Source of the DNA: Galactobacter caseinivorans
GTDB taxonomy: Bacteria > Actinomycetota > Actinomycetes > Actinomycetales > Micrococcaceae
Reading direction: 5' to 3'
DNA: 64,000 bases
NCBI RefSeq assembly: GCF_003640665.1
Contig: NZ_QQXL01000001.1
Span: forward strand, 682,001-746,000
Notes under the pieces: generated by a model
Told to the model about the DNA's origin: nothing
Database searches by the model: none
The model's input: only the letters and a program-made list of their open reading frames with translations
In this document: positions 6,420-29,912 of the stretch, piece after piece
Position numbering within the stretch: the stretch's first letter is position 1
Layout: each line of letters starts with the position of its first letter
Made by a program: the position numbers and the translations under genes

Positions 6420-6438
6420 GGATTCGGTTCTAGCCGCG

Positions 6439-6879
6439 TTGGACACCTTCGCTATTGTTCTCATCATTCTGGGGGTCATCCTTGCCCTCCTGGTGGGTTA
6501 CTTTGCGGCTGTGGGCGTGCGGCGCTCACAATTGCGCCGAACACTGGGCACCTTCGATGCGTCTCTACGCATGGGGGGTGCCCGGTGGGCTCCCGGCATC
6601 TGTCGCTACGCCGATCACCGGCTGGAGTTCCTGGCCCTGATCTCCGTCTCGCCCATCCCGATTAGACGGTTCGAGCGCTCGTCGCTTGAGCTCAAGGGAT
6701 GGACCGATCCGGAGCCGCAGGACCGCTCGCGCATGCCGGCGGATGCCATCGTGGTCTCCCTGAGCAGCGATGGAAAGCCGTTCGACTTAGCGATGAGTTA
6801 CGCGGCGTACACGGGCTTGAGCTCGTGGCTGGAGGCTGGCCCTGTGGCCGGCGTCGGCAGCTGGCGCCAGGGACTTTGA
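6439..6879 (+). CDS. DUF2550 family membrane-anchored protein
   Basis: This is a conserved actinobacterial protein of unknown function, habitually encoded just after atpC. It has 146 residues: one N-terminal transmembrane helix (FAIVLIILGVILALLVGYFAA) followed by a soluble domain containing GARWAPGICRYADHRLEFLALISVSPIPIRRFERSSLEL-type DUF2550 sequence. The most plausible start is a TTG at 6439, directly before DTFAIV; no ATG lies in a sensible place except 6292, inside atpC. An AAGGA lies 16 nt before the TTG, which is far. It is probably the last gene of the atp transcription unit, ended by the hairpin at 6907. Confidence 0.82.
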   Translation: MDTFAIVLIILGVILALLVGYFAAVGVRRSQLRRTLGTFDASLRMGGARWAPGICRYADHRLEFLALISVSPIPIRRFERSSLELKGWTDPEPQDRSRMPADAIVVSLSSDGKPFDLAMSYAAYTGLSSWLEAGPVAGVGSWRQGL

Positions 6880-6906
6880 GCCCTCGGGCTGGCGAACTGA
6901 ATGACT

Positions 6907-6952
6907 CGACGAGGCCCCGCCTCTCCCTCACCGGAGCGGCGGGGCCTCGTCG
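6907..6952. terminator. Strong hairpin terminator after the atp operon
   Basis: A perfect 15-bp stem (CGACGAGGCCCCGCC and its complement) encloses a 16-nt loop. It lies 27 bp after the DUF2550 stop. There is no T-run, as is common in high-GC actinobacteria. Confidence 0.8.
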
Positions 6953-6972
6953 CGTCCGGGGCAAGGGGCCGC

Positions 6973-7032
6973 AAGCGGGCTTATCGCTGGTGAGCGGGCG
7001 TATGGGGTGCTTGGCGTCGATAGGGCCGCTTG
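6973..7032. repeat. 60-bp palindromic repeat, copy A1
   Basis: The outer arms are AAGCGGGCTTATCG and CGATAGGGCCGCTT, separated by a centre with GAGCGGGCG and GGTGCTTGG. This is the most divergent left half-centre of cluster A. Confidence 0.85.
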
Positions 7033-7124
7033 TCCGGACTGCTTGGGCGGCGTGCGGATGGGCGACGGCGTCCGGTCGCCTCGCGAGCGGCGGCGTGCCC
7101 GGGGCGGCGTGGCGAGGGGAGGGG

Positions 7125-7184
7125 AAGCGGGCTTATCGCGGAGAAGCGGGCGTGTGGGGTGCTTGGTGTCGATAGGGCCGCTTG
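7125..7184. repeat. 60-bp palindromic repeat, copy A2
   Basis: The outer arms are AAGCGGGCTTATCG and CGATAGGGCCGCTT. An inner AAGC/GCTT dyad sits at element positions 20-23 and 37-40. Confidence 0.88.
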
Positions 7185-7267
7185 GGGCGGCGTGCCGGTG
7201 GGCGACGGCGTCTGGTCGCCTCCCGTGCGGCGGCGGCGTGCCCGGGTCGGTGGGGCGAGGGGAGGGG

Positions 7268-7327
7268 AAGCGGGCTTATCGCGGAGAAGCGGACGTGTGG
7301 GGTGCTTGGCTTCGATAGGCCCGCTTG
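7268..7327. repeat. 60-bp palindromic repeat, copy A3
   Basis: The outer arms are AAGCGGGCTTATCG and CGATAGGCCCGCTT, which pair over 14 positions with one G-T wobble. Confidence 0.88.
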
Positions 7328-7406
7328 GGGCGGCGTGTTGGTGGGCGACGGCGTTCGGTCGACTCCCGCGTGGCGGCGTGCTCGGGGCGGCGGGGCGAGG
7401 GGGTGC

Positions 7407-7466
7407 ACGCGGGCTTATCGCGGAGAAGCGGGCTTGTGGGGTGCTTGGCGTCGAAAGGCCCGCTTG
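7407..7466. repeat. 60-bp palindromic repeat, copy A4
   Basis: The left arm is slightly degraded at its first bases (ACGCGGGCTTATCG). The right arm is CGAAAGGCCCGCTT. It ends 20 bp before the stop of the convergent minus-strand gene. Confidence 0.85.
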
Positions 7467-7486: not shown

Positions 7487-7987
7487 TTACGAGCGCGGAG
7501 GGAGCGCCTCAAGCGCCGTGAACCACGCCGTGGCCGCCTCCGCCAAGTCCTCGCGGTCCGCCTCCACCTCAAGCACGTCCGGCCAGGCCTCGGGGATGCG
7601 CGGCTCATCGTCGGATTGGGGCAGAACGATCGCCAGGCGCACCGCGTCCTGGTCCACCGAGCGCAGACCGAAGGCCAGCAGGGGTTCGTGGAAGTCCAGA
7701 AGCGTGAGCGGGGGATCGGGCAATTCGCCCGGGGCGGTCGCGGCAAGGGAGGTCCACCAGGCTCCGAGCGAGGCAGCCTCACGCAGGGTCAGCGCGGCCT
7801 CGGCGAAACGGGAATCAAAGCCCGGCGCGGTGAGCCGAACCCCAATGTTGAGCCACTGGGAATCGGGATTCTGGCTGTCGGTGGTGCCAGGGAACTCGTA
7901 GCCCTGCACGCTCAGGTAGAGGGTATGCCCCTCATCATCTGCCCAAGCGGTCTGCACATTCAGGGACTCGCCGCCGGTGCCCTCCAT
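7487..7987 (-). CDS. Hypothetical protein, WapI-immunity-like
   Basis: The product is not firmly recognised. It is an acidic, cytosolic protein of about 166 residues. The pattern LYLSVQGYEFP...WLNIGVRL...LGAWWTSLA...LTLLDFHEPLLAFGL resembles the small WapI-family immunity fold (strand-rich, with a conserved Trp and an F-E-P-L-L-F element near the end), but no toxin gene is adjacent. The ATG at 7987 begins just past the nucS stop, so the two are cotranscribed; a further ATG at 8011 would overlap nucS. The longer open frame to 8131 is nucS read in another frame. Function is unknown. Confidence 0.6.
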   Translation of the reverse strand: MEGTGGESLNVQTAWADDEGHTLYLSVQGYEFPGTTDSQNPDSQWLNIGVRLTAPGFDSRFAEAALTLREAASLGAWWTSLAATAPGELPDPPLTLLDFHEPLLAFGLRSVDQDAVRLAIVLPQSDDEPRIPEAWPDVLEVEADREDLAEAATAWFTALEALPPRS

Positions 7988-7988
7988 C

Positions 7989-8684
7989 TCAGAAGAGTCG
8001 GGAGTCGGCATCGTCCACGCCACGCATCGCGTCGTAATCCAGGACCAGGCACTGGATGCCACGATCCTCGGCCAGGGTGCGGGCCTGCGGCTTGATTTGC
8101 TGGGCCGCAAAGATGCCGCGCACCGGGGCAAGCAACGGGTCCCGATTCATGAGCTCCAGGTAACGGGTGAGTTGCTCCACCCCGTCAATGTCGCCGCGGC
8201 GCTTGAGCTCCACGGCAATCGAAGAGCCATCCCCGTCCCGGGCAAGGATGTCCACGGGACCGATCGCGGTCATGTACTCCCGCCGCACCAGCGTTGAGCC
8301 GGATCCGATCAGGTGAATCTGTTCTGCCAGCAGGCGCTGAAGGTCCGCCTCCACGCCGTCCTTGATGAGCCCGGGATCCACGCCCAAATCATGAGAGGTA
8401 TCAGAGATTTTCTCGGTAATCCGGATGGTGAGGTGATCGTCGGTCTTGGAGTGTTGCACTCGCCAGACCTCCACCACGCCCTCGGCGCGTTCCTCCTCGG
8501 ACGGCCCCTTGGCATGCATGGTGGCCGGGGGGCTCATCCAGTTCAGCGGCTTATAGCTGCCGCCGTCCGAGTGGATCAGCACCGATCCATCCGCCTTCAC
8601 CATCAGCAGGCGCTTGGCCAGCGGCAAATGGGCGCGCAGACGCCCTTCATAGTCAACGGAGCACTTCGCTATTACCAAACGCAC
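7989..8684 (-). CDS. nucS: Endonuclease NucS (EndoMS), non-canonical mismatch repair
   Basis: NucS cuts both strands at mismatched bases and replaces MutS/MutL in many actinobacteria. The protein has 231 residues. The N-terminal dimerisation/DNA-binding domain begins [15 protein letters not shown] and includes [16 protein letters not shown]. The C-terminal RecB-like nuclease domain has Asp145 (GPVDILAR), Glu159 and Lys161 (AVELKRR), the expected metal and catalytic residues. The GTG start at 8684 is supported by a TAGGAT box exactly 7 nt upstream, indicating a leaderless transcript. The longer open frame to 8810 gives an unrelated N-terminus. Confidence 0.95.
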
Positions 8685-8691
8685 GCCATTG

Positions 8692-8697
8692 ATCCTA
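8692..8697 (-). promoter_or_regulatory. -10 box of leaderless nucS promoter
   Basis: TAGGAT on the minus strand, 7 nt before the GTG; this decides the nucS start. Confidence 0.6.
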
Positions 8698-8876
8698 CCG
8701 GCGCGGCCGGCCCTGAGCCGCCAGGCGGCACCGGGGGAGGGGCGGGCACATCGGTCACCGCGCGGTGGTGTGTACCAGCGGCCCGACGCCGTCAGGCGGC
8801 ACCCGACCACGCGGCGTCGGGCACCTCACACGCAGCGGTGCCCCGGCGCCGTGACCACGGTGAGAGAATGGCGCAC

Positions 8877-29386: not shown

Positions 29387-29446
29387 AAGCGGGCTTATCG
29401 ACGCGGAGCGGCCTTGTGGCCTGCTTGGGAGCGATAGGCCCGCTTG
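29387..29446. repeat. 60-bp palindromic repeat, copy B1
   Basis: The outer arms AAGCGGGCTTATCG and CGATAGGCCCGCTT pair over 14 positions with one G-T wobble. The inner AGCGGCC and GGCCTGCT pair around a TTGT loop with one bulge. Confidence 0.9.
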
Positions 29447-29520
29447 GTCCGGCCGCCTGCTCGACGGCGCCCGGTCGCCTTGGCCTCGCTGGCCGCCCGT
29501 CGCTCGACTGTGGGCGTGGG

Positions 29521-29555
29521 GACGCCTCGGTCACCGTGGAGGTGACCGAGGCGTC
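29521..29555. terminator. Perfect 35-bp hairpin, first copy
   Basis: A 15-bp perfect stem GACGCCTCGGTCACC with its complement and loop GTGGA. It is terminator-like and could serve either converging gene. Confidence 0.7.
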
Positions 29556-29578
29556 GTCGTGCGTAGGGTTCCCGATCG

Positions 29579-29638
29579 AAGCGGGCTTATCGACGTGAAG
29601 CGGCCTTGAACCCTGCTTGGGAGCAATAAGCCTGCTTG
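29579..29638. repeat. 60-bp palindromic repeat, copy B2
   Basis: The left arm is AAGCGGGCTTATCG and the right arm CAATAAGCCTGCTT, with two changes that weaken pairing. Confidence 0.87.
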
Positions 29639-29660
29639 GTTTTTGGCGGGTCCGGGGCGG

Positions 29661-29720
29661 GAGCGGGCTTATCGACGTGAAGCGGCCTTGAAGCCTGCTT
29701 GGGAGCGATAGGCCTGCTTG
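29661..29720. repeat. 60-bp palindromic repeat, copy B3
   Basis: The arms are GAGCGGGCTTATCG and CGATAGGCCTGCTT. It lies 22 bp after B2 and has the same centre (GAAGCGGCCTTGAA). Confidence 0.87.
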
Positions 29721-29795
29721 ACCCGGCGGTGTGCCCGACGACGCCCGGTCGCCTTGGCCGCGCGACGTCGCCCGTCGCTCGACTGTGGGCGTGGG

Positions 29796-29830
29796 GACGC
29801 CTCGGTCACCGTGGAGGTGACCGAGGCGTC
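29796..29830. terminator. Perfect 35-bp hairpin, second copy
   Basis: Identical in sequence to the hairpin at 29521-29555, inside a duplicated segment of about 70 bp. Confidence 0.7.
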
Positions 29831-29852
29831 GTCGTGCGTGGGTTCTCGATCG

Positions 29853-29912
29853 AAGCGGGCTTATCGACGTGGAGCGGCCTTGTGGCCTGCTTGGGAGCGA
29901 TAGGCCTGCCGG
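29853..29912. repeat. 60-bp palindromic repeat, copy B4
   Basis: The left arm is AAGCGGGCTTATCG; the right arm ends CGATAGGCCTGCCGG, so the last pairs are lost. It ends 25 bp before the dedA stop. Confidence 0.87.

What the first reader, a model, noticed from the sequence alone, without database searches (positions are those of the whole stretch)
6973..7466. Four tandem copies of a 60-bp nested palindrome in one convergent intergenic region
Each element is exactly 60 bp with outer arms AAGCGGGCTTATCG and CGATAGGCCCGCTT and an internal dyad. The elements are separated by related spacers (period 139-152 bp) and lie between the terminator of the atp/DUF2550 unit and the end of the minus-strand gene. 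The sequence is seen directly; what the elements do (REP-like element, terminator array, protein- or gyrase-binding site) is not known.
Basis: seen in the sequence. Interest (0 to 1): 0.72.

Follow-up and report, generated by a model that had tools for sequence, protein, structure and literature searches.

The report
Species-specific nested palindromes marking gene ends
An actinobacterium (family Micrococcaceae) carries about 75 copies of an exactly 60-letter nested palindrome between its genes, mostly where genes end and nearly always pointing the way the chromosome is copied, while a sister species carries differently spelled palindromes of the same kind, so this looks like a fast-changing class of bacterial repeat for which no copying enzyme was found.

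Summary
Four 60-bp nested palindromes sit at 6973-7466 (spacing 152/143/139), and four more at 29387-29912. A whole-genome search finds about 75 copies in 28 intergenic clusters. No credible match was found in three other species of the genus, in 149 family genomes, in the GTDB contigs (own and near records left out), plasmids or phages. It is therefore a dispersed, lineage-specific family, not a local duplication.

Half-sites and spacers have fixed lengths. No compensatory changes, Rfam family or Y1/RAYT transposase were found. Clusters are enriched between convergent genes. In 27 of 28 clusters the elements point along the leading strand inferred from GC skew, even where both neighbouring genes point the other way. 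The lagging-strand-template sequence folds better in 68 of 71 copies.

The same genome holds a second family (70 bp). A sister species holds two further, unrelated families (56 bp, ~40-45 copies; 71 bp, ~25). Three of the four share the layout M-spacer-M...M'-spacer-M', M-to-M about 19-21 bp.

Best reading: REP/REPIN-like DNA elements recognised by an unidentified protein, probably on single-stranded DNA, and tolerated at gene ends. A terminator array is disfavoured. Nothing here is experimental; function and mobiliser are inferred.

The parts
6973..7032 (+). 60-bp element, copy 1 of cluster A
   Evidence: CM hit C11:688973
7125..7184 (+). 60-bp element, copy 2 of cluster A
7268..7327 (+). 60-bp element, copy 3 of cluster A (both arms match the consensus)
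7407..7466 (+). 60-bp element, copy 4 of cluster A (arms degenerate: ACGCGGG.. / CGAAAGG..)
7033..7124 (+). related spacer 1 of cluster A, G/T-rich on the + strand (the three spacers together: GC skew 0.34, TA skew 0.47)
7185..7267 (+). related spacer 2 of cluster A
7328..7406 (+). related spacer 3 of cluster A
6903..6956 (.). separate terminator-like hairpin of the upstream transcription unit; a comparable G+C-rich hairpin stands at the same place in same-genus species that lack the array
6424..6879 (+). DUF2550 protein gene, upstream neighbour (start approximate)
7487..7987 (-). hypothetical ORF, convergent neighbour (next upstream is nucS/EndoMS, 7989-8810)
29387..29446 (+). 60-bp element, cluster B copy 1
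29579..29638 (+). 60-bp element, cluster B copy 2
29661..29720 (+). 60-bp element, cluster B copy 3
29853..29912 (+). 60-bp element, cluster B copy 4 (3' end degenerate, GCCGG)

Best explanation
The 60-mers are a lineage-specific, REP/REPIN-like family of dispersed intergenic DNA repeats that act at the DNA level. Shown: each copy has four 10-bp modules (AAGCGGGCTT-like) at fixed positions, two pointing inward from each side, with ATCG/CGAT between outer and inner module; the family is dispersed, intergenic, enriched at convergent gene ends and oriented with the leading strand. Inferred: a protein reads the modules, most likely when the element folds into a nested hairpin on the lagging-strand template at the fork; copies spread within the genome through that single-stranded form and survive at gene ends because insertion there is harmless; arrays then grow by ordinary tandem duplication. 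The enzyme is unknown and is not a detectable Y1/RAYT transposase.
For: About 75 copies in 28 clusters, intergenic wherever genes were called. Exactly 60 bp in all but two copies with one-base deletions, one with a 19-bp deletion between the two left modules, and two 53-position matches at the start of contig C15. Nineteen invariant columns form the modules while spacer columns vary freely at constant length. No compensatory changes in 64 copies. Convergent enrichment (8 of 20 cluster regions vs 31 of 267 others, P 0.002). Leading-strand orientation in 27 of 28 clusters, P 2e-7, including three where both neighbours are on the other strand. The lagging-template sequence is the better folder in 68 of 71 copies. 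Recent single-copy changes are not G/T-biased (25 of 1147 A/C sites vs 37 of 1913 G/T sites), so polarity looks built in. Other families with a comparable layout and other sequence exist in the same genome and a sister species. Spacers within an array are related copies. Published REPs also favour convergent and unidirectional gene ends (PMC3733652), and REPINs are inverted doublets forming one hairpin (PMC3116915).
Against: No mobilising gene found: Y1_Tnp absent, and the genes between neighbouring clusters that were inspected are ordinary. No target-site duplications (two chance-level 5-6-mers in 71 copies). No insertion/empty-site pair was demonstrated, because intergenic DNA of the sister species is too diverged. 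Polarity is judged from G/T asymmetry of a near-palindrome, and the leading strand from GC skew of draft contigs; spacers share the asymmetry, so an old strand-specific process is not excluded. REPs of the described super-families carry GTAG or CGTC tags; this family does not.
Confidence: 0.5

Rival explanations
1. Host-function DNA sites: clustered binding sites for a nucleoid, segregation or replication protein (KOPS- or Ter-like in being polar), kept by selection rather than spread as selfish DNA.
For: Strict polarity with replication; fixed module spacing with about two helical turns between modules, and exact 20-bp phasing in the 70-bp family; G/T-rich tract up to and within the arrays, reversing in TA skew downstream.
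Against: The same-genus species lack the sequence and at least one carries unrelated ones; a conserved host function would be expected to keep its site. Only 28 clusters, 1-7 copies each. The 56-bp family of the sister species is close to symmetric, so it cannot carry the same polarity.
Confidence: 0.24
2. RNA-level elements: read-through transcripts fold into the hairpin, acting as (bidirectional) terminators or mRNA 3'-end stabilisers.
For: Location at gene ends and between convergent genes; stable predicted RNA hairpins, z -2 to -4.8; G.T far exceeds A.C in the outer stem (89 vs 6); strong covariation in the sister species' 56-mer (63 compensatory cells, 0/500 shuffles).
Against: No T-run follows the elements; a separate terminator-like hairpin precedes array A; zero compensatory changes in the 60-mer, fewer pairs than shuffled; in three clusters the favoured strand is antisense to the gene that ends there; exact spacer lengths are not needed by a hairpin.
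Confidence: 0.16
3. Polarity is a by-product of strand-specific mutation: ancient symmetric palindromes skewed to G/T on the lagging-strand template, with no functional orientation.
For: Departures from a perfect palindrome mostly run to G or T on one strand; array spacers are also skewed (TA skew 0.63 mean, positive in 19 of 19).
Against: Recent within-cluster changes show no G/T bias; element-free intergenic DNA is hardly skewed (0.03/0.02); the sister species' 56-bp palindromes stay close to symmetric.
Confidence: 0.07
4. Only a local tandem duplication.
For: Spacers and elements within one array are related.
Against: 28 clusters on seven contigs with largely unrelated flanks.
Confidence: 0.01

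Closest known systems
REP / BIME elements (GTAG- and CGTC-tagged palindromic repeats, PMC3733652)
   Same: Short dispersed palindromes, intergenic, enriched between convergent and unidirectional genes, single or clustered, several families per genome, often species-specific.
   Different: 60 bp instead of 20-40; no GTAG; CGTC near the ends only in a minority; the phyla listed in that survey do not include Actinobacteria; four-module nested layout; strict replication polarity is not described there.
REPINs with RAYT transposases (PMC3116915)
   Same: Inverted doublet forming one long hairpin, fixed length, intragenomic population, spacers freer in sequence than the modules.
   Different: No RAYT (Y1_Tnp) gene detected in the genome; modules are nested direct plus inverted repeats; no compensatory changes in the 60-mer (REPINs have them, as does the sister species' 56-mer).
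IS200/IS605-type single-strand transposition (PMC6006769)
   Same: Hairpin recognition and a link to the lagging-strand template.
   Different: No Y1 transposase gene detected; no full-length element with such ends recognised; insertion not observed.
Polar chromosome motifs such as KOPS or Chi (from general knowledge)
   Same: Co-oriented with the leading strand.
   Different: Those are 7-8-bp motifs in hundreds of copies; these are 60-bp palindromes in 28 clusters and absent from sister species.

Membership tests
REP (GTAG/CGTC super-families) | Conserved GTAG or CGTC tag at one end of the stem-loop | tested here: not met
   GTAG in 0 of 71 flanks (10 bp either side), CGTC in 13 and GACG in 7 of 71; no tag at the element ends in the alignment.
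REP (GTAG/CGTC super-families) | 20-40-bp palindrome | tested here: not met
   Fixed 60 bp.
REP-like repeats in the broad sense | Dispersed, intergenic, mostly at 3' ends or between convergent genes | tested here: met
   About 75 copies, 28 clusters; 18 of 20 scored cluster regions adjoin at least one gene 3' end.
REPIN/RAYT | RAYT (Y1 HUH tyrosine transposase) gene in the genome | tested here: not met
   PF01797 search of the genome: no match, while 5 of 14 controls score.
REPIN/RAYT | Inverted doublet of fixed length predicted to fold into a hairpin in ssDNA | tested here: met
Intrinsic terminator | G+C-rich hairpin followed by a T-run | tested here: not met
   Hairpin present, but the sequence after the elements is mostly G-rich without a T-run.
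Structured non-coding RNA family | Match to a known family, or compensatory base changes | tested here: not met
   No Rfam match at the gathering score in either array; 0 compensatory cells of 1280.
MITE of a DDE insertion sequence | Target-site duplication and a full-length IS with the same ends | tested here: inconclusive
   No convincing duplications and no half-elements flanking a gene seen; DDE transposases of the genome were not catalogued.
Polar chromosome motif (KOPS-like) | Orientation follows replication direction | tested here: met
   27 of 28 clusters by GC skew and dnaA position on draft contigs.
Polar chromosome motif (KOPS-like) | Recognition by FtsK or another host protein | not testable with these tools
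   Needs a binding assay.

The most novel reading that the evidence does not exclude
A previously undescribed class of actinobacterial repeats: fixed-length nested palindromes built as M-spacer-M...M'-spacer-M', read by one rapidly evolving protein system that changes its module sequence between sister species, spreads or maintains the sites on the lagging-strand template, and so writes replication direction into gene ends without a RAYT transposase.
Probability: 0.18. Interest if true: 0.8.

Novelty: new variant of a known kind. Interest (0 to 1): 0.52.

Why it matters
Small palindromic repeats are common, poorly explained features of bacterial genomes, and their best-understood kind is tied to RAYT transposases. 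Here is a genus in which sister species carry different fixed-length palindrome families, three of four with the same four-module layout, in a genome that lacks a detectable RAYT gene, and with near-perfect alignment to replication in the one family where orientation could be read. That makes how such repeats spread, and whether they are selfish or useful, testable by comparing strains and by fishing for the binding protein.

Tried and rejected
Rfam search: nothing above threshold at the arrays. Plasmid and phage collections: no match. Viral contigs: seven pattern hits, six of them one recurrent sequence and one other, none resembling the element beyond the pattern. GTDB contigs by gapped pattern: none (records of the own and near genomes are left out). 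One weak covariance hit in another genus (G106, 34.8 bits) is an unrelated palindrome on inspection. Looked for a common gene between neighbouring clusters (a transposase): symporter, ROK regulator, amino-acid ABC transporter and a small ORF only; one phage-type integrase lies beside the C16:57.9-kb cluster. Tested whether elements of the two species sit at the same loci: only the two window clusters clearly coincide with 56-mers of G002, about what the numbers of convergent sites would give by chance (chance figure estimated by hand). De novo search for nested palindromes in samples of five other genera gave no clearly comparable dispersed family at this sampling depth.

Full report
OBSERVATION. 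Their arms match with up to two mismatches 16 times in the window against 0.32 expected. The quoted right arm is exact only in copy 3. A second array of four lies at 29387-29912.

HOW MANY AND WHERE. BLAST and profile searches of the window's own draft genome (2.95 Mb, 19 contigs) gave 71 copies. A covariance model added four more (C11:616045, C11:617934 and two 53-position matches near the start of C15), about 75 in 28 clusters. Clusters hold 1-7 copies, often 82 bp or 100-190 bp apart. Codon-usage gene calls (a home-made predictor, so approximate) put the cluster regions between genes; in the leading-strand frame the flanks were ++ 7, +- 8, -- 3, -+ 2. Convergent regions are over-represented (Fisher P 0.002; the comparison set is the sampled stretches).

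WHO HAS IT. None in three other species of the genus or 55 further relatives by BLAST, none in the genus by a loose pattern, no credible hit in 149 family genomes (own included) by covariance model apart from the own genome (the G106 hit was inspected), none by gapped pattern in the GTDB contigs (own and near records left out), none in plasmids or phages.

ANATOMY. Consensus AAGCGGGCTT-ATCG-n(5)-AAGCGGGCTT-G-AGGGGTGCTT-n(5)-CGAT-AGGCCCGCTT-G. AAGC opens both left modules (positions 1 and 20) and GCTT closes both right ones (ending 40 and 59). Nineteen columns are invariant; columns 15-19 and 41-45 vary freely but do not change in length in the 60-bp copies. One truncated copy (C13:2192) has lost the 19 bp between the two left modules. 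Across 64 copies no base pair shows a change on both sides, so the palindrome is not being held by pairing alone. Departures from symmetry are one-sided and run mostly to G or T (89 G.T against 6 A.C cells in the outer stem).

POLARITY. dnaA lies at C14:72 kb. GC skew in sampled stretches is positive on C11, C12, C13, C15, C19 and C14 right of dnaA (one C13 stretch is about zero), and negative on C16 and C14 left of dnaA. Elements are + on the first group and - on C16, with one exception (singleton C14:189079, between divergent genes): 27 of 28 clusters, P 2e-7. Three clusters keep this orientation although both neighbours are on the other strand. Folded with DNA parameters, the leading-strand sequence, which is what the exposed lagging-strand template carries, is the better hairpin in 68 of 71 copies (mean -16.1 vs -12.6 kcal/mol). 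Spacers inside arrays are T-rich and mostly G-rich on the same strand (TA skew positive in 19 of 19, GC skew in 17 of 19), whereas element-free intergenic DNA is hardly skewed (0.03/0.02). Recent one-copy changes inside clusters show no such bias, which argues for built-in polarity, though counts are small.

RELATED FAMILIES. At the orthologous locus the sister species G002 has a different 56-bp palindrome, ATCGGAGTG-GGTTT-GGTACG...CGTACC-CAAGG-CACTCCGAT. It has about 40-45 copies in G002, fewer in G003 and two in G001, none here. All copies matched by a pattern in the fetched stretches are 56 bp, 22 of 36 between convergent genes, with strong covariation. A second family in the present genome is exactly 70 bp in the copies extracted, GGTTTGCGGC-N5-ATCGA-GGTTTGCGGC-N10-GCCGCAAACC-TCGAT-N5-GCCGCAAACC, about 10 places. 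A second family in G002 is 71 bp in the seven copies extracted, with modules GCTTTGCCC, about 25 places, and one in G003. Three of the four families thus share M-M/M'-M' with module spacing of 19-21 bp and no evident sequence identity. That recurrence is the most interesting result. Caveats: the 60-mer and 70-mer differ in where ATCG sits, and the 56-mer lacks repeated modules.

MECHANISM. Shown: a dispersed, fixed-length, polar, intergenic, lineage-specific DNA family. Inferred: recognition of the modules by a protein (fixed spacing, invariant columns, no covariation), probably as a hairpin on the lagging-strand template (polarity, better folding), and REP-like spread followed by tandem duplication. 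Not shown: any binding, any movement, any mobiliser. Y1_Tnp was not detected and inter-cluster genes are ordinary.

COMPARISON. The closest described things are REP/BIME repeats (PMC3733652, read) and REPINs (PMC3116915). REPs too lie mostly between convergent or unidirectional genes, and CGTC-type REPs lack a dedicated transposase. The present family fails the tag and length criteria of REPs and the RAYT criterion of REPINs, so it works like them but is not filed as a member. IS200/IS605 transposition on the lagging-strand template (PMC6006769) would explain polarity, but its enzyme was not found. Paper searches found no description of such repeats in Micrococcaceae; most subscription literature was not searchable.

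VERDICT. Real, dispersed, REP-like, polar and part of a fast-turning class in this genus. New variant of a known kind; moderate interest, higher if mobility or a cognate protein is shown.

Noticed in passing
window 8781-8832, 29459, 29733; about 90 sites in ~100 kb of sampled intergenic DNA (e.g. L080 10231/10270, L084 16296/16327, L097 8663/8684): A second, much more abundant intergenic motif GCCCGACGNCGC(G/T)TGG, often as inverted repeats in terminator-like stems and also in array spacers; the arrangement resembles DNA uptake sequences placed in terminators. A GCCCGACGGCG copy is seen in the orthologous intergenic region of two sister species (L115, L117).
   Followed up: partly
L086 7907-7976, L089 18254-18323, L221-L230: Second nested-palindrome family of this genome, exactly 70 bp, modules GGTTTGCGGC at 20-bp phasing, about 10 places, six of them on the 128-kb contig C19.
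   Followed up: partly
L201 2753-2823, L233-L262 (genome G002): 71-bp nested palindrome family with GCTTTGCCC modules, about 25 copies in G002, one in G003.
   Followed up: partly
L118 329-381 and 1092-1144 (C15 start): Two short 60-mer relatives inside a duplicated, A+T-richer stretch at a contig end; several contig ends (C13, C14, C15, C19) fall near elements, so the draft assembly probably breaks there.
   Followed up: no
L046 4358-5473: Phage-type tyrosine integrase gene next to the C16:57.9-kb cluster of 60-mers.
   Followed up: no
L188 8730, L193 17896, L194 1614 (genome G026): Recurrent 49-58-bp hairpins sharing CGACGGCGGGAGCC in another genus, possibly a terminator-linked repeat family.
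   Followed up: no
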